Positions 15,397-29,954 of a stretch of DNA of 64,000 nucleotides are shown here, in pieces; the first letter of the stretch is position 1, and each line of letters opens with the position of its first letter. The position numbers and the translations under genes are program-made. The notes beneath the pieces were generated by a model that searched no databases, was not told where the DNA came from, and was given only the letters and a program-made list of their open reading frames with translations. The stretch spans positions 1 through 64,000 of the forward strand of contig JAFUCL010000075.1 in NCBI GenBank assembly GCA_017459725.1, in the 5' to 3' direction. The DNA comes from Solobacterium sp. GTDB taxonomy: Bacteria; Bacillota_I; Bacilli_A; Erysipelotrichales; Erysipelotrichaceae.

Positions 15397-16182
15397 TCAG
15401 ATACCCCAGCAAATCAACAGACCGTTAAAGAACATCAGACAGAACAGCAGTGAATCCAGTCTGTCAAGCGCACCGCCGTGTCCCGGCAGAAAAGAACCGA
15501 AATCCTTGATTCCGAAATGTCTCTTAACGGATGAAAAAGCAAGATCGCCGATCTCCGCAACCGCCGGCAGCGTACATGCGGCAACGATCAGAAATGACAG
15601 CGGATACTGCTTCATGGCAAAGATGCCGAACAGCAGCGAAACAATTACACCTGCCGCATAACCGCCGATTGCCCCTTCCCAGGTCTTGTTTGGGGAAATG
15701 CGCGGAATCATCTTGTGCTTTCCGAGATATACACCGAAGAAATACGCACCCGTATCGCATACATAGCAGGCAAGCGCAATGAACATCATCGGAAAGAAAG
15801 CATTCGCGCCGCCGTACAGACGGAAGATGCAGCGGCTGGCCATCAGTGTGATGGAGCCGATCACGTATGTATACACTGCTCTTTCCGTGGTAAACGATTC
15901 ATTCAGGTATGATGCCGTAAACAGCAGCACCAGCGCACCTGCCGCAGCAGCAGGCAGATATGAAGCAGGCACATAGTCACAGCCAAATACAAACGCACTC
16001 ATGATAATCGTCTGTACCCAGTCAGGCTTTCCTTCCGGAAGTGCTGACACCTCATAGGAAGTCATCAGAATGCAGGCCAGCACAAGCGCCTTCATCAGAT
16101 ACCCGCCGAAAATAAACGGCGGCAGCACCACAGCTATGATAATCAATGCGGTCAGGATCCTTGTCAGCATACTTTTCTTCAT
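15397..16182 (-). CDS. cdsA: Phosphatidate cytidylyltransferase
   Basis: Integral membrane enzyme making CDP-diacylglycerol from phosphatidic acid and CTP. The 261-aa protein has about seven hydrophobic segments and the complete C-terminal signature SSVKRHFGIKDFGSFLPGHG followed by GALDRLDS, preceded by ISPNKTWEGAIGG. Start overlaps the uppS stop by 4 bp (ATGA). Confidence 0.97.
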   Translation of the reverse strand: MKKSMLTRILTALIIIAVVLPPFIFGGYLMKALVLACILMTSYEVSALPEGKPDWVQTIIMSAFVFGCDYVPASYLPAAAAGALVLLFTASYLNESFTTERAVYTYVIGSITLMASRCIFRLYGGANAFFPMMFIALACYVCDTGAYFFGVYLGKHKMIPRISPNKTWEGAIGGYAAGVIVSLLFGIFAMKQYPLSFLIVAACTLPAVAEIGDLAFSSVKRHFGIKDFGSFLPGHGGALDRLDSLLFCLMFFNGLLICWGI

Positions 16183-16880
16183 TGTTTGACTCCCCCGAAA
16201 CGGCGGTCTCTTGTCATGTATTCATCCAGACAGCGCTTGAGAACTTCCGGTGTGAATTCAGGCCAGCTTTCCGGCACGAATTCCAGTTCCGCATAGGCAA
16301 TCTGCCACAGAAGATAATTGGAGATTCTCTCCTCCCCGCTGGTGCGTATCAGAAGATCAACCGGCGGGAAATCCTTCGTCATCAGATATTTCTCAAACCC
16401 TGCTTCATCAATGCCAAGCTCTGCTTTTCCTTCCAGTACATCCTTGGCATAGGCATTGGCAGCCAGCACAAGCTCCCGGTGCGAGCCGTAATTCATCGCT
16501 ATGTTCAGACTGAGTCCGGAGTTCTTCTTTGACTCTTCCTCTGCTTCCCGCAGCACCTTTGCCGTAGCTGCCGGCAGATCATCCAGCTCACCGATCATTC
16601 TGATCCGGAAGCCGCGGTCCAGGAACTCCTTCATATACTTCCTGAAAAAGAAAGACGGCAGATTCATCAGGTACCCGACTTCCTCCTTTGATCGCTTCCA
16701 GTTTTCAGTGGAAAAAGCATACAGAGTCAGGTATTTCACACCCAGCGCATCCGCCGCAATAGCTATCGTTCTGACATTGTCTGATCCGGCCATATGTCCG
16801 GCCGTACGCGGAAGACCCTGAGCAGTCGCCCAGCGTCCGTTTCCGTCCATGATAATCGCAACATGTTCACAGTTTTTCAT
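16179..16880 (-). CDS. uppS: Undecaprenyl diphosphate synthase (UPP synthase)
   Basis: Cis-prenyltransferase making the C55 carrier lipid for peptidoglycan and other wall polymers. The 233-aa protein has HVAIIMDGNGRWA (catalytic Asp in MDGN), YLTLYAFSTENWKR, and DLLIRTSGEERISNY. The ATG at 16880 begins the conserved part and has no SD; TATAAT lies 7 nt before it. An in-frame ATG at 16922 has a distant GGAG and would add 14 unconserved residues (MKNANALQYGIICC). I prefer the leaderless start. It opens the uppS-cdsA-dxr-rseP-galE-EIIA operon. Confidence 0.93.
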   Translation of the reverse strand: MKNCEHVAIIMDGNGRWATAQGLPRTAGHMAGSDNVRTIAIAADALGVKYLTLYAFSTENWKRSKEEVGYLMNLPSFFFRKYMKEFLDRGFRIRMIGELDDLPAATAKVLREAEEESKKNSGLSLNIAMNYGSHRELVLAANAYAKDVLEGKAELGIDEAGFEKYLMTKDFPPVDLLIRTSGEERISNYLLWQIAYAELEFVPESWPEFTPEVLKRCLDEYMTRDRRFGGVKQ

Positions 16881-16887
16881 ACAGCAA

Positions 16888-16896
16888 ATTATACCA
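16888..16896 (-). promoter_or_regulatory. Extended -10 promoter of uppS, leaderless geometry
   Basis: On the minus strand TGG-TATAAT (16888-16896), then TTGCTGT and ATG. The same pattern TATAAT-TTTCTGT-ATG precedes lepB. Confidence 0.6.
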
Positions 16897-17083
16897 TACT
16901 GCAGAGCATTCGCGTTCTTCATTCGAATAACCGCTCCATACATTCTGCTTGTATGCCCTGCGCACCGGAATAATGTATGCAGTGCAGGCTTCAGCAATAT
17001 TCCGTTTGCGCTTTAGTTTGATGCAATAAATATCTATATAGAATATTATTTATGTATAAACTGCTGAAAGTGAGGAAACAAGC
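16897..17083. other. Intergenic region between divergent uppS and the glycan cassette
   Basis: No gene seen. An inverted repeat CGGAATA/TATTCCG lies at about 16969-17005. The AT-rich stretch 17018-17062 probably carries the plus-strand cassette promoter (TTGATG at 17018-17023 with a poorly resolved -10), and GTGAGGAAAC provides the SD for the first gene. No riboswitch or attenuator is evident. Confidence 0.5.
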
Positions 17084-18622
17084 ATGGAGTATATCGTTGT
17101 ACAGGCCGGAGGCAGAGGATCACGCCTCGGCAGACTGACAGCCAACAAACCAAAAGCTCTGGTCCCTGTTGAAAACCTTCCGATGCTGTTTCATCTCTTC
17201 CGTAAGTATCCCGATAAACGCTTCATTATAATTGCCGACTATAAAAAAGAAGTGCTGCGCTCCTATCTGGCAGCTTTTGCGGATGTGGCATACCTGGTGG
17301 CCGATGCCGAAGGAAAAGGAACCTGTGCCGGCATCAGAAAAGCCCTGTCCATGATACCGGAACATACCGGGATCATGCTTATATGGTCGGATCTGATCCT
17401 GCCGGATTCCTTTACGCTGCCTGCGGGATACGGAGACAGCGAAATACCTTCGGATCAGTATATCGGAATCTCCGGTACTTTCCCGTGCCGGTGGTCTTAC
17501 AGCAATAATCAGTTTGCCGAGGAGAGATCCTTTGAGCATGGTGTGGCCGGCTGTTTCTGGTTCACTGACAAAGCGGTTCTGCAGGACGTTCCGGCTGAAG
17601 GAGAATTTGTCCGCTGGCTCAGTACGCAGGATATTCACTTCCGTACGCACAGCCTTGCAGGCTCACGGGAATTCGGTCTTGAAGAAGACATCCGCGCCTT
17701 GCCAAGACCCATCTGCCGTCCCTTCAACCGTCTGCGCATCGAAGAAGACAGGCTGATCAAGGAGCCTGTTGATGCACAGGGAAGAAAACTGGCAGAAAAA
17801 GAAACCGCCTGGTACACACAGGTTGCCGGAACGGAAGGAATCCCCCTGCCACGCATTTATGACATGCATCCGCTGACCATGGAACTGATCAAGGGCAAAC
17901 CCGTACATGCATGCCGTCTGAACAGACAGGAGAAAACTGCCCTGCTGCAGCAGATCGTGGACGGACTCAAGAGAATACACTCTGCCGGGTCAATTCCCGC
18001 GGATGCCTTCAGCATGAAGGAAGCCTACTTCCGCAAGACCGTTTCCCGTCTGGCCGGAATACGCGGTCTTATTCCCTTTGCGGATTCCCGGTATATTACC
18101 GTCAACGGAAAGAAATGCCGGAATGTATGGTTCTGCATGAATGAACTGGAAGCGAAACTGGACGCTCTGCAGTGCAGCCGGTTTGTTCTGATACACGGCG
18201 ACTGTACATTTTCAAATATTCTGCGCAGGGATACCGGTGAGCCTGTGTTCATCGACCCCCGCGGTTACTTCGGTTTCACGGATCTGTACGGAGACGAACG
18301 GTATGACTGGGCAAAACTCTATTATTCCATTGCCGGCAATTACGATCTGTTCAATCTCGGACAGTTTGAACTGGAAACCGGCGGTATCAACGGCACAGCG
18401 GGAACGGAACTGAAAGAAAATGAAGTGCGGGTCTCCATTGCCTCTGAAGGCTGGGAAGACATGCAGGATGCTTTCTTTGCAATGACCGGCTGTGACCCCG
18501 ATGAGATACGTCTTCTGCATGCCGTGATCTGGCTGTCCTTAACAACCTACGCCTGGCAGGATTACGATTCTGTGTGCGGTGCTTTCTATACAGGACTGTA
18601 TTATCTGGAGGATGTTTTATGA
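17084..18622 (+). CDS. Fused sugar/alcohol nucleotidyltransferase and APH-type kinase
   Basis: A 512-aa bifunctional protein. Residues 1-210 are a nucleotidyltransferase (VVQAGGRGSRLGRLTANKPKAL; an Asp in MLIWSDLILPD). Residues about 235-512 are an aminoglycoside/choline-kinase-like fold with the Brenner motif LIHGDCTFSN (HGD near 370) and the metal motif VFIDPRGYFG. Such pairings make NDP-activated small molecules or sugars for surface glycans, as LicC plus LicA do for phosphocholine. The substrate cannot be read from the sequence. It is the first gene of the seven-gene plus-strand cassette and overlaps the next gene by 4 bp. Confidence 0.8.
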   Translation: MEYIVVQAGGRGSRLGRLTANKPKALVPVENLPMLFHLFRKYPDKRFIIIADYKKEVLRSYLAAFADVAYLVADAEGKGTCAGIRKALSMIPEHTGIMLIWSDLILPDSFTLPAGYGDSEIPSDQYIGISGTFPCRWSYSNNQFAEERSFEHGVAGCFWFTDKAVLQDVPAEGEFVRWLSTQDIHFRTHSLAGSREFGLEEDIRALPRPICRPFNRLRIEEDRLIKEPVDAQGRKLAEKETAWYTQVAGTEGIPLPRIYDMHPLTMELIKGKPVHACRLNRQEKTALLQQIVDGLKRIHSAGSIPADAFSMKEAYFRKTVSRLAGIRGLIPFADSRYITVNGKKCRNVWFCMNELEAKLDALQCSRFVLIHGDCTFSNILRRDTGEPVFIDPRGYFGFTDLYGDERYDWAKLYYSIAGNYDLFNLGQFELETGGINGTAGTELKENEVRVSIASEGWEDMQDAFFAMTGCDPDEIRLLHAVIWLSLTTYAWQDYDSVCGAFYTGLYYLEDVL

Positions 18623-19224
18623 CGGAGTATTTCAACGAACAGCTGCAGGTTTTTCAGCAATCCCTTGCATCCATGGACAACGAATTGTTTGAGCACATGG
18701 TCCGGGACGCCTCCGCTGCCCTGCAGAACAACTGCTGTATAGTTGCGACGGGTCTTGGAAAAAACGTGCCCATCTGTGAGAAATTTGTCGGTACGATGGT
18801 TTCCCTCGGTCTGCGCACGCTGTTCATGAATACAAACAGCGCTGTTCACGGCGACCTCGGCTGCCTGCATGACGGCGATATGCTGATCGTGCTTTCCAAA
18901 AGCGGCGAAACCGAAGAATCCCTGCGTCTTGTCAGAGAAATCAGGAAACAGGAAAGAAAAATCACCATCTGGCTGATTACATATACCCGCGGCAGTTCAC
19001 TGGAAGCCCTGTGCGACCATTCCCTTGTGATGAATCTTGCACATGAAGGAGATGCCTGGAATATTGTTCCCACGAATTCCTCAACAATCAACCTGATTGT
19101 TCTGCAGGGACTTGCCGTACTGACTGCACAGCGTATGGGTATTACGCTGGAAGACTTCGCCAAGAACCACCCCGGCGGCGCAATCGGTGATGCCCTGCAG
19201 AAAAGGAGCTCCGGCAATGTCTGA
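18619..19224 (+). CDS. SIS-domain sugar-phosphate isomerase, KpsF/GutQ-like without CBS domains
   Basis: A 201-aa cytosolic protein. Its SIS fold is seen in IVATGLGKNVPICEKFVGTM, GDLGCLHDGDMLIVLSKSGETEE and the C-terminal HPGGAIG typical of arabinose-5-phosphate isomerases. The tandem CBS domains of KpsF/KdsD are missing, so it is the short form found in glycan clusters. A ketose/aldose phosphate isomerase role is inferred. Start 18619 has GGAGG upstream and couples to the preceding gene (ATGA). Confidence 0.82.
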   Translation: MTEYFNEQLQVFQQSLASMDNELFEHMVRDASAALQNNCCIVATGLGKNVPICEKFVGTMVSLGLRTLFMNTNSAVHGDLGCLHDGDMLIVLSKSGETEESLRLVREIRKQERKITIWLITYTRGSSLEALCDHSLVMNLAHEGDAWNIVPTNSSTINLIVLQGLAVLTAQRMGITLEDFAKNHPGGAIGDALQKRSSGNV

Positions 19225-19591
19225 AACACTTGTCTTATCAGCCCTGCCCAAGACCTGGATACTGGATCTCGACGGCACGGTTCTGGTTCATAACGGATAC
19301 CTGACAGAGGCAGGAGACTGCCTGCTTCCCGGTGTGAAAGATTTCTTTGATGCTCTGCCGGCTGAAGACATGGTGATCTTCATCACCTCCCGCAGTGTAA
19401 AGTACAAAGCCGCAACCGAAGCATTTCTGCAGAACAGCGGCATCCGCTTTCATACCGTTATCTACGACGCTCCGTACGGCGAGCGCATCCTGATCAATGA
19501 CCGCAAACCGTCAGGTCTCAGAACTGCCTATGCCCTGAATCCCGAGCGTGATACTTTTTCCATCAGCACCGTAACCGATCCCGCGCTATAG
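19217..19591 (+). CDS. HAD-superfamily phosphatase, small, capsule-cluster type
   Basis: A 124-aa protein with the HAD motif I WILDLDGTVLV (nucleophile Asp about residue 16), motif II in VIFITSR, and motif III/IV as ERILINDRKPSG. There is no room for a cap domain, so it probably acts on a sugar phosphate or a protein-bound phosphate. Start 19217 with AAAAGGAGC was chosen; it overlaps the SIS gene by 8 bp. SIS plus HAD plus nucleotidyltransferase resembles heptose- or Kdo-type precursor pathways, which is inference. Confidence 0.8.
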   Translation: MSETLVLSALPKTWILDLDGTVLVHNGYLTEAGDCLLPGVKDFFDALPAEDMVIFITSRSVKYKAATEAFLQNSGIRFHTVIYDAPYGERILINDRKPSGLRTAYALNPERDTFSISTVTDPAL

Positions 19592-19602
19592 AAAGACTCA
19601 GT

Positions 19603-21345
19603 ATGACATTGCTTGAAGAAGATACCGCATTCACACAGGCCGAAAGAGGCAGAGAACTTGCCGTGCAGCTGCGTAATACATACGCCGCGGACGAGAGAAC
19701 CTGCTGGATCATTCTTCCGGATGATGATGAGGAATTATGGGAAGCTGCCGCAGAGAATCTGCCCTCCTACATGGAGAGCAAATGTTTTTCGCATGCCCTG
19801 ATACTCGGCTGCCGCAGCTGTTTTACGGAACTGTACTTTGAACGTGGAACAATACACTATATTGCATGCACGCAGGATGATCTGGATGCCATCCTTGCAT
19901 ATTACCGTCTGGTCCCCTTTGCGGAAACCGTTGTTGTGTCCCTGAAGGAACCGTATGCCCTTCCCGGCTGGATCGGTCATTTCGGCATCACCGTCAGGGA
20001 TTATGTCAGGGATGCGCTGTTCTTCGGCAAACCGGTCAGCTGGATGACCTGGAAAACCGACAGAGCCGGTATCCTGCAGGATCTGCAGAAACAGATGGAT
20101 AAACTGACCGGCAGAAATATCTATATCTACGGATGGACAAACTATGCCGTAAAAATAGCGGAAGGTCTGCAGAAATGCGGTCTGAAGCCTGCCGGTATGG
20201 TTGATTCCGATCCTGACAAGGAAGGATGGAACAGCGCGCTTTCAATTCCCTGCCGGACACCCGAACATGCCCTGCTGCCCTATGACAGTAATGCCGCCGT
20301 TATTATCGTTTCCAAATACGGCAGAGAGATGCGCCGAAAGCTGCTGTCGCTCGGCTATCCGGAAGCACAGACCGTAACGGTATCCGTTCAGAAAGATACC
20401 TCATCCCTTATGGACATGGACAAAGAGACGCTTCTGCATGAATACGGCATTGCCCGCACTGGACTTGATTTACGGAACAGTATATCCGCACAGTTTATCG
20501 TACCGTGCATCGGCGGAACCGGTGATGTTTACTGGCTCTGCGCACTGCTGAAAAGCTACCTGGAAGAAAACAACATACATGACTATGCCCTTATCCTCGA
20601 TGAAAAAAGAATACGGGCAGCCTCTGCCGTTGCCGCACTGTTCGGCATTGAGAGAATCATCACCCTTACGGTGGAACAGCTCAGCTCCCTGTATAAAGCA
20701 TGGGAATTCTACGGCAGTGAACAGATGCACATGAAGCCTGATCTGCACATCGGCAGCCGTCTTGCCCGGAATATCAATCCTCCCAAAGAGAACGGCCATT
20801 ACCCGCTCTGGCGCAATCATCTCAACAGCATGCGCTGCCAGTATTTCCATGACCGCACGATAAAGACTCTGTACGAACCCGTACAAAGAGATCCCGGTGC
20901 CGGGGTTTATGAAGCTTACGGAATCCGGAAAGGACGCACGGTGATTCTCTCCCCGTACGCTGCCGCCGTCCAGTCAACCCTTGCCAATACGGATTTCTGG
21001 ACGAGACTCGCTGCTGCCCTGCAGGAAAGAGGTCTTACCGTATTCACCAACTGTGCAGGCAATGAACAGCCAATTGAAGGCACACGGGCTGTCTGTCCCG
21101 CATACAGTGAACTGATTCCCTTCCTGAATCATGCCGGCTGTCTGATTGCCGTACGCAGCGGGTTATGTGATATAGCCGCTACTGCCAGGCGGTGCAGAAT
21201 CCTGCTGATTTACGAGAAAGGAAACGGTGTAATACCCGATACATTCAGTCTGAAGCGGATGGGGATTCATCCGGATTCGGAAGACTTCCTCTACAGCGGC
21301 AATACCGACACTCTGCTCAGCCAAATACTCAGCCACATTTCGTAA
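19603..21345 (+). CDS. Two-part protein: PglD-like Rossmann segment and GT9-like glycosyltransferase
   Basis: A 580-aa protein. Residues 1-165 are unrecognised. A nucleotide-binding-like module starts at 171 (NIYIYGWTNYAVKIAEGLQ ... MVDSDPDKEG), like the N-terminal domain of PglD/NeuD proteins. From about 290 the sequence resembles the heptosyltransferase fold (FIVPCIGGTGDVYWLCALLK; then VILSPYAAAVQS, and LIAVRSGLCDIAATARRCRI near 530). It likely transfers or senses a sugar in the glycan pathway; donor and acceptor are unknown. It lies 11 bp downstream of the HAD gene. Confidence 0.6.
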   Translation: MTLLEEDTAFTQAERGRELAVQLRNTYAADERTCWIILPDDDEELWEAAAENLPSYMESKCFSHALILGCRSCFTELYFERGTIHYIACTQDDLDAILAYYRLVPFAETVVVSLKEPYALPGWIGHFGITVRDYVRDALFFGKPVSWMTWKTDRAGILQDLQKQMDKLTGRNIYIYGWTNYAVKIAEGLQKCGLKPAGMVDSDPDKEGWNSALSIPCRTPEHALLPYDSNAAVIIVSKYGREMRRKLLSLGYPEAQTVTVSVQKDTSSLMDMDKETLLHEYGIARTGLDLRNSISAQFIVPCIGGTGDVYWLCALLKSYLEENNIHDYALILDEKRIRAASAVAALFGIERIITLTVEQLSSLYKAWEFYGSEQMHMKPDLHIGSRLARNINPPKENGHYPLWRNHLNSMRCQYFHDRTIKTLYEPVQRDPGAGVYEAYGIRKGRTVILSPYAAAVQSTLANTDFWTRLAAALQERGLTVFTNCAGNEQPIEGTRAVCPAYSELIPFLNHAGCLIAVRSGLCDIAATARRCRILLIYEKGNGVIPDTFSLKRMGIHPDSEDFLYSGNTDTLLSQILSHIS

Positions 21346-21390
21346 GTATACTTGCACAGCAGCTTTTCTGCTTTTTCATGGAGGTCATCA

Positions 21391-23025
21391 ATGCTTCAGT
21401 TCATCAAAATTCCCAAAGCTTCAGTAACAGAACGTCCGGTCTATATCTGGGATATCGGCACACTTGCAATGTGGGTGCTGCTGCCGCTGATCAACAGAGG
21501 TGTCCGCATCTCCGGATTCGTAACAAATTACAGCGAATACTGCGGAGAAACGATTCTGAATCTGCCCGTCATCTCTCCGGAAGAATTCGCTGAGACAAAC
21601 GGTGTGATTATTGCTAACGATGAGATCAGCGACGGTACATTCGCACTGGTGCAGAGCTTTGGGGAAGCATACAGGATGAAAGACATCATGGTGCTGAATC
21701 CCCTGCTCTCTCAAAGTTCTCTGTATGTATACGGAACAGGAAACCGCATCTGGAGATTCCTTAAGGAAGCCGGAGAAAAACATATCGAAATCAAAGGCAT
21801 TCTTTCGGAAACAGGTCCGGAAGAGATTCTCTCCGTGCCCGTAACCAGTCCCAAGGAGACTGTATTTACACCGAACGACTGTATCGTAGTCTGCAATGAC
21901 ATCCACAGCAAAGATGCTGTGACTGTCATGTCACTGCGCAAAGACGGCTTTGCCGGAACCCTGTTTATTCCGGAACTGACACCTCTGGCAACACTGTGGT
22001 CAACCGATACCGTCACCGTGCTCGACACTGCGATGAAGGAAGACAAACGCATTATCCTCGTCAGTGCGGATGATGACGGCAAGGAAATCGTGCGCAGATT
22101 CATCTCCATGTACGGAATACCCGTTGCCCGTGAGCTGATTCTCGGCGGTGCAGATGACATCTGGTCGCTTGCGGATGAAGATCCGGCTGACAGCGTGATC
22201 CTGATCCAGGCCATGGACCTGCATCAGCGGTGTGACATTGTGGATGCGGTCAATGATCTCGGATACTCACTCGGACAGCATAATTATGTTTCCGTACAGC
22301 AGGCCTGCTATAACCGTCTGCGCACTTCCGAGACACTGGCATATGAGCATGATTTCAAGATCGGCAGCAGTATTGATTACAGCGGCATCGGCGGTCTTCC
22401 CGGATGGAGAATATACGGCGAAGAACCGGCGGACTGCAGAATCATGGTGCTGGGCGGAAGCACATCATCAGAAGTCTATTATCCGGAGAACTGGGTCAGC
22501 AAACTCTTCCGTAAAATCAGCAGTGAAGGAAAACACGTTCGCATATACAACGGCGCCGTTGAAGGAAATGCCGTATACCATGAATTCAACAGACTGATCC
22601 GTGATATCCATGCGCTCAAACCGGATATTGTCATCAGTATGAGCGGATACAATGACATGAGGACAGACACCGATAAGTTTGAAAACTGGCGCGGTGAGGC
22701 ACGTTTTCCGTATTGGCGGAGAATGCAGTCATACATGAAGCTGATTGCCGAAAGTGAAGGAGCATCCTATTACGCCTTCCTGCAGCCGGTCAACCGTGAT
22801 CCGGAACATTTATCTCTTCATGAAGTTATGCGTTACCTCGGACAGGTTCACCGCCGCGGCAAGCTTTTTACCGACGGACAGCGTGATGATGATTTTTATA
22901 TCAACCTATACAGTGCATTCGTACACAGGGATGAATGCTATATTGATCTGTCCCATTATTCCGAAGAAGGCACAAGCAGACTTGCGGAGCTTGTCTATGA
23001 TGCAATCAAGGAGGAACTTAAATGA
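21391..23025 (+). CDS. SGNH-hydrolase-like protein with tandem Rossmann-like modules
   Basis: A 544-aa cytosolic-looking protein without a signal peptide. The N-terminal half repeats short Rossmann-like units (VYIWDIGTLAMWVLLPLI; LYVYGTGNRIWRFLK; IILVSADDDGKEIVRRF). The C-terminal part from about 345 has SGNH blocks: MVLGGSTSSE (Ser), SMSGYNDMR (Asn) and DLSHYSEEG (Asp/His). O-acetyl esterase or transferase activity on a glycan is possible. Start 21391 has GGAGGTC 5 nt upstream. It overlaps the carbamoyltransferase by 4 bp. Confidence 0.7.
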   Translation: MLQFIKIPKASVTERPVYIWDIGTLAMWVLLPLINRGVRISGFVTNYSEYCGETILNLPVISPEEFAETNGVIIANDEISDGTFALVQSFGEAYRMKDIMVLNPLLSQSSLYVYGTGNRIWRFLKEAGEKHIEIKGILSETGPEEILSVPVTSPKETVFTPNDCIVVCNDIHSKDAVTVMSLRKDGFAGTLFIPELTPLATLWSTDTVTVLDTAMKEDKRIILVSADDDGKEIVRRFISMYGIPVARELILGGADDIWSLADEDPADSVILIQAMDLHQRCDIVDAVNDLGYSLGQHNYVSVQQACYNRLRTSETLAYEHDFKIGSSIDYSGIGGLPGWRIYGEEPADCRIMVLGGSTSSEVYYPENWVSKLFRKISSEGKHVRIYNGAVEGNAVYHEFNRLIRDIHALKPDIVISMSGYNDMRTDTDKFENWRGEARFPYWRRMQSYMKLIAESEGASYYAFLQPVNRDPEHLSLHEVMRYLGQVHRRGKLFTDGQRDDDFYINLYSAFVHRDECYIDLSHYSEEGTSRLAELVYDAIKEELK

Positions 23026-24845
23026 TTGTTCTCGGTATCTCAGCCTATTATCATGATTCAGCCGCCGCCCTGATCTGCGACGGTGAGATCATAGCCGCCG
23101 TTCAGGAGGAACGCTTCACCCGCATCAAACAGGACCGTTCCCTCCCCGTGCATGCAATCCGCTACTGTCTGGAAGCAGGCGGACACCTGAAAGGAAGCGA
23201 CCTGGATGCTGTGGTCTATTACGATGATCCCGTGCTGACATTGGAACGATATCTGTACAATGTCAAAGCAGTACAGGATGACAGCGATGACCTGGTGCAG
23301 CTGAGCGGACCTTCCCTGTTCGGGCAGAAGCTGTGGATTGAAAAACTGCTCAGAGATGAGCTCGGTATGCTGGGCAGACAGGACCGTCTTTATATATCGA
23401 GGCATCACTGCTCCCATGCCGCATCAGCTTTTTACCCTTCACCGTTTGCTTCGGCAGCCATCCTGACCGTAGACGGTGTCGGGGAATGGAATACCACAAC
23501 CATCTCACACGGACACGGTAAAAAGATCGATATTCTGAAAACCATCAACTACCCGCATTCCCTTGGTCTGCTGTACAGTGCATTCACCTATTTCTGCGGA
23601 TTCAAGGTCAATTCCGGTGATTATAAACTGATGGGACTGGCTCCCTACGGAAAACCGGTGTATAAACAGCTGATCTATGACCATCTCATCGATGTCAAGG
23701 CAGACGGATCATTCAGGATGAACCCGGAATACTTTGATTACCAGCACGGACGGGCTATGACAAATGCAAAGTTTGCAGAACTGTTCGGCGGCAGAGAACG
23801 CAGACCGGAAGAAACGATCACCCTCAGGGAGATGAATATTGCGGCTTCTGCCCAGGCTGTGACCGAAGAAATCCTGGTGCGCCTTGCCCGCACCGCTGCC
23901 AGGCTTACGAAGGAAAAGAACCTGGTCATGGCCGGCGGTGTAGCCCTGAACTGCACAGCCAACGGTCTTCTGGTCAGGGAAAAGATCTTTGATCATATCT
24001 GGATTCAGCCTGCAGCAGGAGATGCGGGTGGCGCCCTCGGTGCTGCCCTTGCCTGGTACTATGCACAGAATGAGACTGTACGTCACACAGAGACCCCGGA
24101 CAGCCAGAAAGGAAGCTTCCTCGGTCCGTCATATACCAACGAACAGATTGCCGCGTGGATGGCTGAAAAACACATTCCTGCCCATTACCTGGAAGATGAC
24201 GCATTGTTTGATACAATTGCAGAACTGCTGGATCAGCAGAAGGTCATCGGCCTGCTCAACGGCAGAATGGAATACGGACCGCGTGCTCTCGGTCACCGCA
24301 GCATCATCGGTGATCCCCGCTCGGATGAAATGCAGTCGCGTATGAACCTGCGCATCAAATACAGAGAATCATTCCGCCCCTTTGCCCCTTCCGTTCTCAG
24401 AGAAAGAACCGCTGATTATTTTGATCCGGAACTCGATTCACCGTACATGCTGTTCTGCTGCGGTGTCAGAAACGCCGAGGATCCTGCCAACCTGCATGAG
24501 GAACTGCAGAAAGATCCCGATCTGATCCGCATCATCAACCGCCACCGTTCCCCCGTACCGGCCATAACGCACGTAGACAACAGTGCCAGGATCCAGACCG
24601 TGGACGCACAGACAAATCCGTTTTTCCACCGCCTGATCAAAGCCTTTGAGAAACGCACGGGATGCGGAACAGTCATCAACACTTCATTCAACGTACGCGG
24701 TGAACCGATCGTCTGTACGCCGGAAGATGCATACAACTGCTTCATGAACACTGAAATGGATGTTCTGGTTATGGAAAACCATATTCTGTACAAAGAAGAA
24801 CAGCCAAAAGAGAAACTGAGGAATGATACATATGAACCGGATTGA
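23022..24845 (+). CDS. Carbamoyltransferase, NodU/CmcH/TobZ family
   Basis: Transfers a carbamoyl group from carbamoyl phosphate to a hydroxyl, via a carbamoyl-adenylate. The 607-aa length is that of the family. The N-terminal Kae1-like half has VLGISAYYHDSAAAL, HHCSHAASAFYPSPF and TVDGVGEWNT; the C-terminal half has GPRALGHRSIIGDPR and NTSFNVRGEPIV. In the cassette it probably carbamoylates the sugar or alcohol made by the upstream enzymes. Neighbours overlap on both sides (4 and 14 bp), so translation is coupled. Confidence 0.92.
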   Translation: MIVLGISAYYHDSAAALICDGEIIAAVQEERFTRIKQDRSLPVHAIRYCLEAGGHLKGSDLDAVVYYDDPVLTLERYLYNVKAVQDDSDDLVQLSGPSLFGQKLWIEKLLRDELGMLGRQDRLYISRHHCSHAASAFYPSPFASAAILTVDGVGEWNTTTISHGHGKKIDILKTINYPHSLGLLYSAFTYFCGFKVNSGDYKLMGLAPYGKPVYKQLIYDHLIDVKADGSFRMNPEYFDYQHGRAMTNAKFAELFGGRERRPEETITLREMNIAASAQAVTEEILVRLARTAARLTKEKNLVMAGGVALNCTANGLLVREKIFDHIWIQPAAGDAGGALGAALAWYYAQNETVRHTETPDSQKGSFLGPSYTNEQIAAWMAEKHIPAHYLEDDALFDTIAELLDQQKVIGLLNGRMEYGPRALGHRSIIGDPRSDEMQSRMNLRIKYRESFRPFAPSVLRERTADYFDPELDSPYMLFCCGVRNAEDPANLHEELQKDPDLIRIINRHRSPVPAITHVDNSARIQTVDAQTNPFFHRLIKAFEKRTGCGTVINTSFNVRGEPIVCTPEDAYNCFMNTEMDVLVMENHILYKEEQPKEKLRNDTYEPD

Positions 24846-25101
24846 TGATTACACTTTCCCTGTTATTGACAGGATGGCAGACAGTTATTTCGAAGAGCAG
24901 AAGGAAGAAGAGATGCTGACGGTATATCACTTCAGCACCCTTCCGGAACTGCGGCATATGCTGCAGGAAAGACTCGGCGGAAGCATCAGCGAACAGGAAA
25001 TCCTTGAAGTCTGCCGTAATGTTTTCCGCAGTAAACCTTCTGCTGTACAGGAAGCGGAAGATATACGCCGCGAAGTTGTCGATTTCATATACGAACTGTG
25101 A
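24832..25101 (+). CDS. Small protein of unknown function, last gene of the glycan cassette
   Basis: Not recognised. The 89-aa, acidic, predicted all-helical protein has no signal or membrane segment (FEEQKEEEMLTVYHFSTLPE; ISEQEILEVCRNVFRSKPSA). Start 24832 was chosen because GAGGA lies about 9 nt upstream; an in-frame ATG at 24823 abuts that SD. It overlaps the carbamoyltransferase by 14 bp, which supports co-translation and a role tied to the cassette. It could be an acceptor or adaptor protein, but no motif shows it. Confidence 0.65.
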   Translation: MNRIDDYTFPVIDRMADSYFEEQKEEEMLTVYHFSTLPELRHMLQERLGGSISEQEILEVCRNVFRSKPSAVQEAEDIRREVVDFIYEL

Positions 25102-25123: not shown

Positions 25124-25149
25124 AAAGGACACGCATGCGCGTGTCCTTT
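25124..25149. terminator. Bidirectional terminator between glycan cassette and frr
   Basis: An 11-bp perfect stem AAAGGACACGC/GCGTGTCCTTT (25124-25134, 25139-25149), with A/T flanks on both sides, between convergent transcription units. Confidence 0.8.
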
Positions 25150-25179: not shown

Positions 25180-25728
25180 TCAGACCTTCATGACTTCGTC
25201 GCTCTTGCGGGCGGCAATCTCGTCGATCTTCTTGATGTAACTGTCGGTCAGCTTCTGGATCTCGTTCTGCGCATCCTTCTGCACATCCTCATCCATCGTC
25301 TTATCGTTCTTGACAGCTGTATTGGCGTCACGGCGGATATTACGGATCTGAACCTTGCATTCCTCCGCAATCTTGGAAACTTTCTTGGTCATTTCCTTAC
25401 GTGTTTCTCCGGTCAGCTGCGGAACGGTCAGACGGATTACAGTACCGTCATTGCTCGGTGTGATGCCGAGATCTGCCGCATAGCATGCTTTCTCGATATC
25501 CTTCAGGCTGGACGGGTCATACGGCTTGATGACCAGAATACGGCCTTCCTGCACTGAAATACCGGCAATCTGATTCAGCGGTGTCGGTGAACCGTAGTAG
25601 TTTACGGATACACGGTCAAGCATTGTCGGATTTGCACTGCCCGTACGTACGGTCGCAAGTTCTTCACCCAGATGTGCGATTACTTTTTCCATTTTTTCTT
25701 TGCTGGTGTCTACAATCTGATACGTCAT
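25180..25728 (-). CDS. frr: Ribosome recycling factor
   Basis: Splits post-termination ribosomes together with EF-G. The 182-aa protein shows VRTGSANPTMLDRVSVNYYG, QEGRILVIKPYD, GITPSNDGTVIRLTVPQLT and the helical C-terminal VRNIRRDAN-type segment (VQIRNIRRDANTAVK). SD is AGGAGAGG. It is 20 bp downstream of pyrH in the usual pyrH-frr order. Confidence 0.97.
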   Translation of the reverse strand: MTYQIVDTSKEKMEKVIAHLGEELATVRTGSANPTMLDRVSVNYYGSPTPLNQIAGISVQEGRILVIKPYDPSSLKDIEKACYAADLGITPSNDGTVIRLTVPQLTGETRKEMTKKVSKIAEECKVQIRNIRRDANTAVKNDKTMDEDVQKDAQNEIQKLTDSYIKKIDEIAARKSDEVMKV

Positions 25729-27490: not shown

Positions 27491-27952
27491 TTAATCAACA
27501 ATGTAATACTGCAGAATAACGGAATCGGGATTCCTGATGGCCTTGCAAAAGAAGACATGCTTCTCCAGCCAGATCAGACTGTCATCATACACTTCAAACG
27601 ACGGTACAGTCGCAAAGTAATACAGTGACGGATCGACGATTCTGCCGGCCAGGACTTCCGGCGCATACTCTGCCGGAACCGTACGCAGACCGTTGTTCTC
27701 AATATAGAATGATCTGCCGTCATCCAGCTTAACTGCATACCTTGCCGAAAGCTCACAGGTTCCATCAGGTCTGATCACCTGGGAATCAATACCGCCCGGC
27801 AGAACGGTTCCTTTCAGGGCATTCCCTTCCATATCCGTACCGGTCATTTCCCCGGACAGGATCGGAATCAGCTGTCTGCGGCCGTTGCGCGCATTCTGTC
27901 CGACCAGTACAGGCTTATCCACCATTACGGCAATATCAAACAGTTTTCTCAT
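27491..27952 (-). CDS. DUF3237 family protein
   Basis: A 153-aa soluble protein; the family has no firmly assigned activity. The recognisable elements are VLVGQNARNGRRQLIPILSG near residues 15-34, TVLPGGIDSQVIRPDG and the tail PDSVILQYYIVD. It is 10 bp downstream of an Old-Yellow-Enzyme/FAD oxidoreductase, so it may work on or protect a small aromatic or enone substrate of that enzyme, which is inference. Confidence 0.75.
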   Translation of the reverse strand: MRKLFDIAVMVDKPVLVGQNARNGRRQLIPILSGEMTGTDMEGNALKGTVLPGGIDSQVIRPDGTCELSARYAVKLDDGRSFYIENNGLRTVPAEYAPEVLAGRIVDPSLYYFATVPSFEVYDDSLIWLEKHVFFCKAIRNPDSVILQYYIVD

Positions 27953-27962
27953 CCGGGACTCC

Positions 27963-29954
27963 TCAGATCGCGTTGGCTACTTCGTAAGCATCCCAGACTG
28001 CATACATGATGTTGGAAACGTTCCTTGCATCACCGAGCAGATACAGCTCATTCACATCAAACTTCACTGCTTCATACAGACTGTTTTCACTGCGGTAACC
28101 GACACAGAGGACAACACTGTCAGCCGGGAAGCTCTTCTCTTCACCGCCGATGACAGCCTTCAGGCAGCCCTCACGGTACTCCGTAACCTTTGCGCCGCAT
28201 TCGATCTTCACACCGCTGTACGGCAGCAGCTCCTTCAGCATCTCCCGGTTGGCACTGCAGATCGGTCCGTTGACTGCCATAACACTGTCCAATGCCTCAA
28301 GCAGTGTAACATCCTTGCCCTTCTGCGCAAGATCCAGGGCCAGCTCACAGCCGACAAGACCCGCACCGACAACCGCCACACGGCTGCCCGGATCTTTCAC
28401 ACCGGTCAGCACATCTTCAGCCGCATATACCTTTGCATCATCACCGAGGCTGAACATCTTCGGTCTTGAACCCGTCGCAATCAGTACGGCATCATATGCA
28501 GGATCTTTGACCATTGCTTCATCGGCTTTGGTATTCAGACGCACATCCACACCGAGCCTGTCCAGTTCATCGCGGTACCACTGGGCCAGTGCGAGATCAT
28601 CTTCCTTGAAGGAAGGCGCACCGCCCGGAATCAGATTGCCGCCGAGCTGTCCGGAAGCTTCCACAAGAACGGGTTCATGACCGCGTTCCGCAAGCACTCT
28701 CGCTGCTTCACAGCCAGCAACACCGCCGCCGACCACGAGCACTTTCTTTTTGCGCACGACCGGAGCCAGCGCTGCACTGCGTTCCTTGCCTGTCTGCGGA
28801 TTCACTGCACAGTTGATCAGGGAATACTCCTGTATACGGCCCATGCAGCCTTCCTGACAGCTGATGCAGGGACGGATCTCCTTCAGGCGTTCCGTACGGA
28901 TCTTGTTGACGATATCCGGATCTGCCAGGGTCGGACGGCCAAGGCTGATGACATCACAGATACCCTCTTCAAGGCATTCCAGGGCAGTATCAGGGTTATC
29001 CACTCTGCCTGCCATAATCACCGGCACAGATACGTTTTCCTTCACAATGCGTGCGAAATCCTTGTACAGTGCCTTCTCCATATACATCGGAGGATGATTC
29101 CACCACCATGCATCATAGGTGCCGGCATCCACATCCAGCGCATCATAGCCGTACTTCTCCAGAAGTTTCGCAGCTTCAATGCCCTCTTCAATGTCTCTGC
29201 CCTTTTCTTCAAACTCTTCACCGGGCAGTGCACCGACACGGAAATCCTTGATCATGCTCTTGAGGCTGTAACGCATGGCCACCGGGAAATCCCATCCGCA
29301 TGTACGGGCGATCTCTTCTCTGATTTCCTTTGCGAAACGAAGCCTGTTCTCGAGGCTTCCGCCGTATTCATCATCACGGTGGTTAAAGAATGAGATGGCA
29401 AACTGATCGAGCAGATAGCCTTCATGGACGGCATGGATCTCCACACCGTCAAAGCCTGCCCGCTTGGCATTGTATGCGCCTTTGCCGAAGCTCTCCACAA
29501 TACCGTGAATCTCTTCCACGGTCAGCGGACGGCACATCTTGTCAAGCCAGCGGTGCGGTACGGCAGATGCCGAAACCGGCGGGAACTCGCCCAGATTGGT
29601 CGGAATCGTCACGCGGCCAAAGCCTGCACTCATCTGCAGGAAGATCTTCGCACCGTAGGCATGCACACGTTCCGTCATCTCACGGCTTGTACGCACAAAC
29701 TGCACAGGATTATACGTGCTGTTCGGCGTATTCGGGAATGAGGGTTTTTCGACGACTGTATCACTGAACGTAACACCGGTAATGATCAGGCCGATGCCGC
29801 CCTGTGCTCTGCGGGTGTAGTAATCCACACCGCGTCCGTTCCAGCCGCCTTCCGAGTCACCGAGACCCAGAGGACCCATTGGGGCCATCGCATAGCGGTT
29901 CTTCATCTCCACTTTGCCGATGGACACCGGAGTAAATAACTTCTGATACTTCAT
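27963..29954 (-). CDS. NADH-dependent flavin oxidoreductase (OYE/2,4-dienoyl-CoA reductase/BaiH-like, FMN + 4Fe-4S + FAD)
   Basis: A 663-aa multidomain enzyme reducing activated C=C bonds. It has an FMN TIM barrel (1-360; active-site segment GVEIHAVHEGYLLDQF at 170-185), an iron-sulfur site with Cys363, 366, 370 and 382 (CISCQEGC...C), an FAD-binding motif VLVVGGGVAGCEAA near 404, and an NADH motif VAVVGAGLVGCELA. Relatives include BaiCD/BaiH of bile-acid metabolism and FadH; the substrate cannot be decided here. SD is GAGGAGG. The tsf terminator ends about 29 nt before its start. Confidence 0.9.
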   Translation of the reverse strand: MKYQKLFTPVSIGKVEMKNRYAMAPMGPLGLGDSEGGWNGRGVDYYTRRAQGGIGLIITGVTFSDTVVEKPSFPNTPNSTYNPVQFVRTSREMTERVHAYGAKIFLQMSAGFGRVTIPTNLGEFPPVSASAVPHRWLDKMCRPLTVEEIHGIVESFGKGAYNAKRAGFDGVEIHAVHEGYLLDQFAISFFNHRDDEYGGSLENRLRFAKEIREEIARTCGWDFPVAMRYSLKSMIKDFRVGALPGEEFEEKGRDIEEGIEAAKLLEKYGYDALDVDAGTYDAWWWNHPPMYMEKALYKDFARIVKENVSVPVIMAGRVDNPDTALECLEEGICDVISLGRPTLADPDIVNKIRTERLKEIRPCISCQEGCMGRIQEYSLINCAVNPQTGKERSAALAPVVRKKKVLVVGGGVAGCEAARVLAERGHEPVLVEASGQLGGNLIPGGAPSFKEDDLALAQWYRDELDRLGVDVRLNTKADEAMVKDPAYDAVLIATGSRPKMFSLGDDAKVYAAEDVLTGVKDPGSRVAVVGAGLVGCELALDLAQKGKDVTLLEALDSVMAVNGPICSANREMLKELLPYSGVKIECGAKVTEYREGCLKAVIGGEEKSFPADSVVLCVGYRSENSLYEAVKFDVNELYLLGDARNVSNIMYAVWDAYEVANAI

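What the first reader, a model, noticed from the sequence alone, without database searches (positions are those of the whole stretch)
17084..25101. Seven-gene glycan cassette inserted in the conserved frr-uppS junction
frr-uppS is adjacent in most Firmicutes; here a divergent, tightly overlapping set encodes a nucleotidyltransferase-kinase, SIS isomerase, HAD phosphatase, GT9-like protein, SGNH protein, carbamoyltransferase and an unknown small protein. Together they look able to make an NDP-activated, carbamoylated sugar or polyol and attach it. No flippase, polymerase or known cps regulator is present, so this would be a modification cassette. It lies next to the gene for its likely lipid carrier.
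Basis: partly seen in the sequence, partly recalled or inferred. Interest (0 to 1): 0.75.

Follow-up and report, generated by a model that had tools for sequence, protein, structure and literature searches.

The report
Laterally acquired sugar-activation gene cassette
Seven tightly packed genes between frr and uppS look like an imported operon whose first three genes form a recurring enzyme set, probably making an activated form of the rare sugar D-arabinose; the remaining genes, found together only here, would attach and decorate it.

Summary
Seven overlapping + strand genes (17084-25101) separate frr from uppS, with their own terminator-like hairpin before frr. The site is variable within the genus: often empty, sometimes holding other genes. 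The cassette's first gene was found in none of 145 other genomes of its family, and its tree places it inside a Lachnospiraceae/Clostridia clade, so it was probably acquired laterally. The position next to uppS is therefore weak evidence about lipid carriers.

The first three genes are a recurring module: nucleotidyltransferase-APH kinase fusion (A), KpsF/KdsD-type isomerase (B), small HAD phosphatase (C). B adjoins A in 33 of 41 relatives. C lies within 10 kb in 25, and 11 of 13 further A genomes have C elsewhere, against 0 of 20 controls. A-B and B-C fusions occur. Elusimicrobiota loci lack B, but those genomes have KdsD, once inside the locus. I infer ribulose-5-P to arabinose-5-P to arabinose-1-P to NDP-D-arabinose. 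Enzyme classes and linkage are shown; substrates are inferred.

D (probable GT-B transferase) recurs loosely. E (SGNH), F (carbamoyltransferase) and G were not found with A-C elsewhere, so decoration is inferred from operon structure. No published bacterial route of this kind was found in the papers searched.

The parts
17084..18622 (+). Gene A: nucleotidyltransferase (res. 1-~210) fused to APH-type kinase (res. ~211-512)
   Evidence: Pfam NTP_transf_3 and APH above cutoff; AF2 pLDDT 90.7; N-domain folds like GMPP/LicC/MurU/HddC, C-domain like APH, maltokinase, MTR kinase, LicA; catalytic residues invariant in 42 homologues
18619..19224 (+). Gene B: short SIS sugar-phosphate isomerase of KpsF/GutQ/KdsD type, no CBS domains
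   Evidence: TIGR00393 E 1.5e-29; PDB 5uqi 4.5e-22 and 2xhz (arabinose 5-phosphate isomerase) 1.3e-13; K63, E158, H199 invariant in 35 (numbered on the 216-aa ORF); SD GGAGG
19217..19591 (+). Gene C: small HAD phosphatase
   Evidence: HAD motifs DxD, T/S, K, D invariant or nearly so in 26 homologues; 45-60% identical relatives near A or elsewhere in A genomes
19603..21345 (+). Gene D: ~150-aa domain of unknown function, small Rossmann domain, probable GT-B glycosyltransferase (GT9-like)
   Evidence: 22 of 41 relatives of A have a D-like protein within 10 kb; Rossmann part matches 3nkl (1.5e-6); GT9 only weakly in 1 of 12 relatives
21352..23025 (+). Gene E: N-terminal small Rossmann-like domains (read from sequence) plus C-terminal SGNH hydrolase/acyltransferase domain
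   Evidence: Lipase_GDSL_2 1.9e-4, below cutoff; GGSTS 368, SGYND 431, DLSH 532 motifs
23022..24845 (+). Gene F: O-carbamoyltransferase of NodU/TobZ/NovN family
   Evidence: Carbam_trans_N 3.7e-86, Carbam_trans_C 4.3e-71; PDB NovN, GdmN, TobZ; 53-56% identical to carbamoyltransferases on Planctomycetota and rhizobial plasmids
24823..25101 (+). Gene G: hydrophilic 92-aa protein of unknown function
   Evidence: no family above cutoff; SD-preceded, overlaps F by 23 bp; not found in 299 Lachnospiraceae genomes
25124..25149 (.). Palindrome, probable bidirectional terminator between the cassette and frr
   Evidence: perfect 26-nt palindrome; fold z -3.3
16179..16997 (-). uppS, left border
   Evidence: Pfam Prenyltransf 8.8e-78
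25180..25728 (-). frr, right border
   Evidence: 67-83% identical frr beside uppS in most sister genomes

Best explanation
The cassette is a laterally acquired operon built on a three-gene sugar-activation module. B isomerises D-ribulose-5-phosphate to D-arabinose-5-phosphate. C removes the 5-phosphate, before or after the anomeric kinase half of A phosphorylates C1. The nucleotidyltransferase half of A converts D-arabinose-1-phosphate to NDP-D-arabinose. D, a probable cytoplasmic GT-B glycosyltransferase, transfers the sugar to a glycan acceptor; F carbamoylates a hydroxyl of the donor or product, and E adds or trims an acyl ester. The decorated unit would join a surface glycan whose assembly genes lie elsewhere. 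Shown: gene structure, enzyme classes, catalytic residues, A-B-C linkage, placement of A within a Lachnospiraceae/Clostridia clade. Inferred: substrates, order of steps, identity of the nucleotide, roles of D-G.
For: B belongs with KpsF/GutQ/KdsD isomerases with active-site residues kept. Elusimicrobiota loci have A-C but no B; all four genomes encode a KdsD-like protein, in G640 a 322-aa one three genes after A. A-B-C linkage: B adjoins in 33 of 41, C within 10 kb in 25 of 41; in 13 A genomes without nearby C, 11 have C elsewhere versus 0 of 20 controls (Fisher 4e-7). Fusions A-B (L107, 699 aa) and B-C (L041, 387 aa). The logic phosphatase - anomeric kinase - nucleotidyltransferase is that of MupP-AmgK-MurU (PMC5371407); a fused kinase-pyrophosphorylase making GDP-D-Ara exists in Leishmania (PMC11301363). 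A groups within Lachnospiraceae/Clostridia (97/98 and 100/99 support).
Against: No substrate was tested. Elusimicrobiota are expected to need KdsD for KDO, so its presence in those genomes is expected anyway. The kinase fold is tied with choline kinase LicA and aminoglycoside kinases. G378 has A and C but no B-like gene beyond a weak SIS hit in a 656-aa frame. Two A genomes lack C. E, F and G are not part of the recurring module. The window branch in the A tree is long (0.87). Control genomes are not phylogenetically independent.
Confidence: 0.55

Rival explanations
1. A-B-C make another NDP-sugar, such as an NDP-heptose or a hexose derivative, with B acting on a different phosphosugar.
For: Same enzyme-class logic (SIS, kinase, HAD, nucleotidyltransferase) as GmhA-HddA-GmhB-HddC; the N-domain of A is tied with HddC in fold; GT9-like proteins are heptosyltransferase-like.
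Against: B is KpsF/KdsD type, not GmhA type; A's kinase is APH, not GHMP; L036 carries GmhA- and GmhB-like genes (read from sequence) in addition to A-B-C, so the module does not replace them.
Confidence: 0.2
2. A is a LicA-LicC-like enzyme that activates choline or another small alcohol for decoration of a glycan, and B and C serve a separate step.
For: LicC and LicA are among the tied fold matches of the two domains.
Against: Does not explain the constant presence of B and C or the A-B fusion; no Choline_kinase Pfam match in 14 kinase domains, which match APH and fructosamine kinase; no LicD-like gene in the cassette.
Confidence: 0.1
3. B and C belong to a KDO-like route, with arabinose-5-P going to an eight-carbon acid.
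For: KdsD and KdsC are SIS and HAD enzymes; L040 has NeuB-like and CMP-sugar-synthase-like genes after A-B (read from sequence).
Against: No KdsA-like aldolase or KdsB-type nucleotidyltransferase in the cassette; A's kinase is unexplained; L040 is one locus.
Confidence: 0.07
4. The seven genes are a chance run of unrelated insertions with no common pathway.
For: The frr-uppS site accepts different genes in sister species; E, F and G do not recur with A-C.
Against: Overlapping co-directional genes, one terminator, and strong recurrence of A-B-C and D.
Confidence: 0.05

Closest known systems
MupP-AmgK-MurU peptidoglycan recycling (PMC5371407)
   Same: HAD sugar-phosphate phosphatase, anomeric kinase (APH family, from own knowledge) and RmlA-like nucleotidyltransferase acting in series
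   Different: there separate genes acting on MurNAc; here kinase and nucleotidyltransferase are fused and a KdsD-type isomerase feeds the route
Leishmania arabino/fuco-kinase-pyrophosphorylase (PMC11301363)
   Same: one polypeptide with kinase and pyrophosphorylase making GDP-D-Ara through D-Ara-1-P
   Different: known here from the paper only; homology not tested; the bacterial kinase is APH type
GDP-D-glycero-manno-heptose pathway (GmhA, HddA, GmhB, HddC)
   Same: isomerase, kinase, HAD phosphatase, nucleotidyltransferase
   Different: different isomerase and kinase families; fused A
Short arabinose-5-phosphate isomerases (PDB 5uqi, 3etn; C. tetani isomerase cited in PMC11301363)
   Same: CBS-less SIS protein with the KdsD active-site residues
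   Different: genomic setting: nearly always beside the A fusion
NodU/TobZ/NovN O-carbamoyltransferases; plasmid carbamoyltransferase-SxtJ-DUF5989 clusters
   Same: full-length F, 53-56% identity
   Different: no SxtJ or DUF5989 neighbour here; G instead
DPPR/DprE and three-component pentofuranose systems (PMC11127046)
   Same: introduce D-pentofuranoses into glycans
   Different: use PRPP and a lipid-linked sugar, not a nucleotide sugar

Membership tests
KpsF/GutQ/KdsD arabinose-5-P isomerase | SIS domain with catalytic Lys, Glu, Glu, His (residue list from own knowledge of E. coli KdsD) | tested here: met
   K63, E158, H199 invariant in 35 homologues, E112 in 29; PDB matches
KpsF/GutQ/KdsD arabinose-5-P isomerase | full length with CBS pair, curated score of TIGR00393 | tested here: not met
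   103.5 bits against cutoff 203.7; aligns to profile 3-154 of 268 only; it is of the short type
KpsF/GutQ/KdsD arabinose-5-P isomerase | Ru5P-Ara5P isomerase activity | not testable with these tools
   needs enzyme assay
Sugar-1-P nucleotidyltransferase (RmlA/MurU-like) | GGxGxRL loop, conserved Lys and metal Asp, RmlA-like fold | tested here: met
   R14, K24, D103 invariant in 42; Z 19-20 to MurU, LicC, GMPP, HddC
APH-type small-molecule kinase | HGDxxxxN and second metal Asp motif, APH fold | tested here: met
   D373, N378, D391 invariant; Z 15-17; Pfam APH in 13 of 14
Anomeric sugar kinase (AmgK, MTR kinase, maltokinase type) | phosphorylates C1 of a sugar | tested here: inconclusive
   fold tied with other APH kinases including LicA
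LicA/LicC choline activation | Choline_kinase-type kinase | tested here: inconclusive
   no Pfam Choline_kinase match, but LicA is among tied folds
GT9 glycosyltransferase (D) | Pfam Glyco_transf_9 above cutoff | tested here: not met
   no hit in D; one of 12 relatives at E 0.0036
O-carbamoyltransferase (F) | Carbam_trans_N and Carbam_trans_C over full length | tested here: met
   PDB matches
SGNH hydrolase/acyltransferase (E) | S, G, N, H blocks in order | tested here: met
   GGSTS, GNAVY, SGYND, DLSH in order; Pfam score below cutoff
GDP-heptose pathway | GmhA-type isomerase and GHMP kinase | tested here: not met
   B is KpsF type, kinase APH type

The most novel reading that the evidence does not exclude
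A dedicated bacterial route from ribulose-5-phosphate to NDP-D-arabinose, using a fused nucleotidyltransferase-APH kinase, spread laterally among gut Firmicutes and Elusimicrobiota, and here combined with a carbamoyltransferase and an SGNH enzyme to make a carbamoylated D-arabinose decoration.
Probability: 0.45. Interest if true: 0.7.

Novelty: new variant of a known kind. Interest (0 to 1): 0.55.

Why it matters
The bacterial D-arabinose donor described in the papers read is lipid-linked. A soluble nucleotide donor made from a pentose-phosphate intermediate would be a new entry point for D-arabinose into bacterial surface glycans, and would explain why arabinose-5-phosphate isomerases occur in bacteria without KDO. 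Three enzymes can be tested in one pot.

Tried and rejected
E in viral contigs: none; E in 10 genomes carrying A and 295 phylum genomes: none, and without a positive control outside the window this is weak. G in 299 Lachnospiraceae: none. F at E<=1e-80 in 382 phylum genomes: none. Kinase profile against PDB: only a weak ribulosamine kinase hit. D profile against PDB: only its Rossmann domain. Direct repeats or mobile-element ends at the borders: none found. Composition gave no sign of foreign DNA. Paper searches for bacterial NDP-D-arabinose routes gave nothing relevant, within an open-access library. The C. tetani arabinose-5-phosphate isomerase paper is not held. Considered and set aside: a polyol product (no reductase in the cassette).

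Full report
What is there. The window holds pyrH, frr, the seven-gene cassette, then uppS, cdsA and dxr. The cassette is transcribed divergently from uppS and convergently with frr. Genes overlap or nearly touch, B, C, F and G have strong ribosome-binding sites, and a 26-nt palindrome at 25124-25149 separates G from frr. None of the products has a likely membrane segment (Kyte-Doolittle scan), so the enzymes are predicted cytoplasmic.

The site. In sister genomes of the same genus pyrH-frr-uppS-cdsA is usually kept. Several have only a short gap between frr and uppS, four of the seven read in full carry an ABC ATPase gene there, one carries an ATPase, a membrane protein and a small protein (L079), and in one frr was not seen near uppS at all (L078). 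The junction is thus a variable site. A was found in no other of 145 family genomes beyond generic nucleotidyltransferase hits and E in none of 272.

Origin. A has relatives at 45-62% identity, nearly all full length, in 26 loci, mostly Lachnospiraceae, in 14 of 250 sampled genomes of one Lachnospiraceae family and 4 of 248 in the phylum of an Elusimicrobiota genome, and one on a Planktothrix plasmid (39%). In a maximum-likelihood tree the window A lies inside the Lachnospiraceae/Clostridia clade. Lateral transfer into this lineage is the simplest reading; the window branch is long.

The module. In 41 relatives B-type SIS genes adjoin A in 33, C lies within 10 kb in 25 and a D-like protein in 22; E and G in none, F-like only in Planktothrix. 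In 13 genomes with A but no nearby C, 11 have C elsewhere; 20 Lachnospiraceae genomes without A have none (Fisher 4e-7). A-B fusion (L107), B-C fusion (L041) and an ABC-ATPase-A fusion (L108) exist. In G543 B lies about 8 kb away at the end of the same glycan locus. Many loci contain other glycan genes: glycosyltransferases, epimerases, a polysaccharide-type ABC transporter (read from sequence), so the product probably feeds surface glycans.

The sugar. B is of the KpsF/GutQ/KdsD kind with conserved active-site residues. Four Elusimicrobiota loci lack B, and each genome has a KdsD-like gene; in G640 it sits three genes downstream of A. Because KdsD is expected for KDO, only the G640 placement is more than consistent. 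Phosphatase, anomeric kinase and nucleotidyltransferase in series are known for MurNAc (PMC5371407), and a fused kinase-pyrophosphorylase makes GDP-D-Ara in Leishmania (PMC11301363). Hence NDP-D-arabinose is the leading product. Structure prediction of A gave two confident domains; the first is tied among sugar-1-phosphate and phosphocholine nucleotidyltransferases, the second among APH kinases including maltokinase, methylthioribose kinase and LicA. Fold therefore does not settle the substrate.

The other genes. D carries a ~150-aa N-terminal domain that is a separate gene in some relatives, a small Rossmann domain and a GT-B-like part; Pfam does not confirm GT9. F is a solid O-carbamoyltransferase whose nearest plasmid relatives sit with SxtJ, DUF5989 and sugar acetyltransferase genes, near exosortase-related genes in Planctomycetota. 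E has intact SGNH motifs. G is unknown. That E, F and G act on the product of A-D rests on operon structure only.

Verdict. Observation confirmed; interpretation partly supported. The useful result is the recurring A-B-C module and the specific, testable proposal of an NDP-D-arabinose route.

Noticed in passing
L128 (Planktothrix agardhii NIES-204 plasmid AP017992.1), 14986-16877: A and C homologues adjoin in a specialised-metabolite-like cluster with amidinotransferase, sulfotransferase, glycosyltransferase and carbamoyltransferase genes, suggesting the module also serves small-molecule glycosylation.
   Followed up: partly
L108, 5981-8365: A fused to a polysaccharide-export-type ABC ATPase (794 aa).
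   Followed up: no
L021, L022, L031, L033, L036, L044: A ~150-aa conserved protein or domain of unknown function, like the N-terminus of D, repeatedly lies beside A-B; no Pfam match in D.
   Followed up: partly
frr-uppS gap in L080-L083: A 330-350 aa ABC transporter ATPase gene occupies the frr-uppS junction in several sister species.
   Followed up: no
Sporofaciens musculi, L032, L033, L042: Three separate copies of the A-B pair in one genome.
   Followed up: no
window 27491-27952: DUF3237 protein beside an Old-Yellow-Enzyme-like gene at 27963-29954 (read from sequence); not examined further.
   Followed up: no
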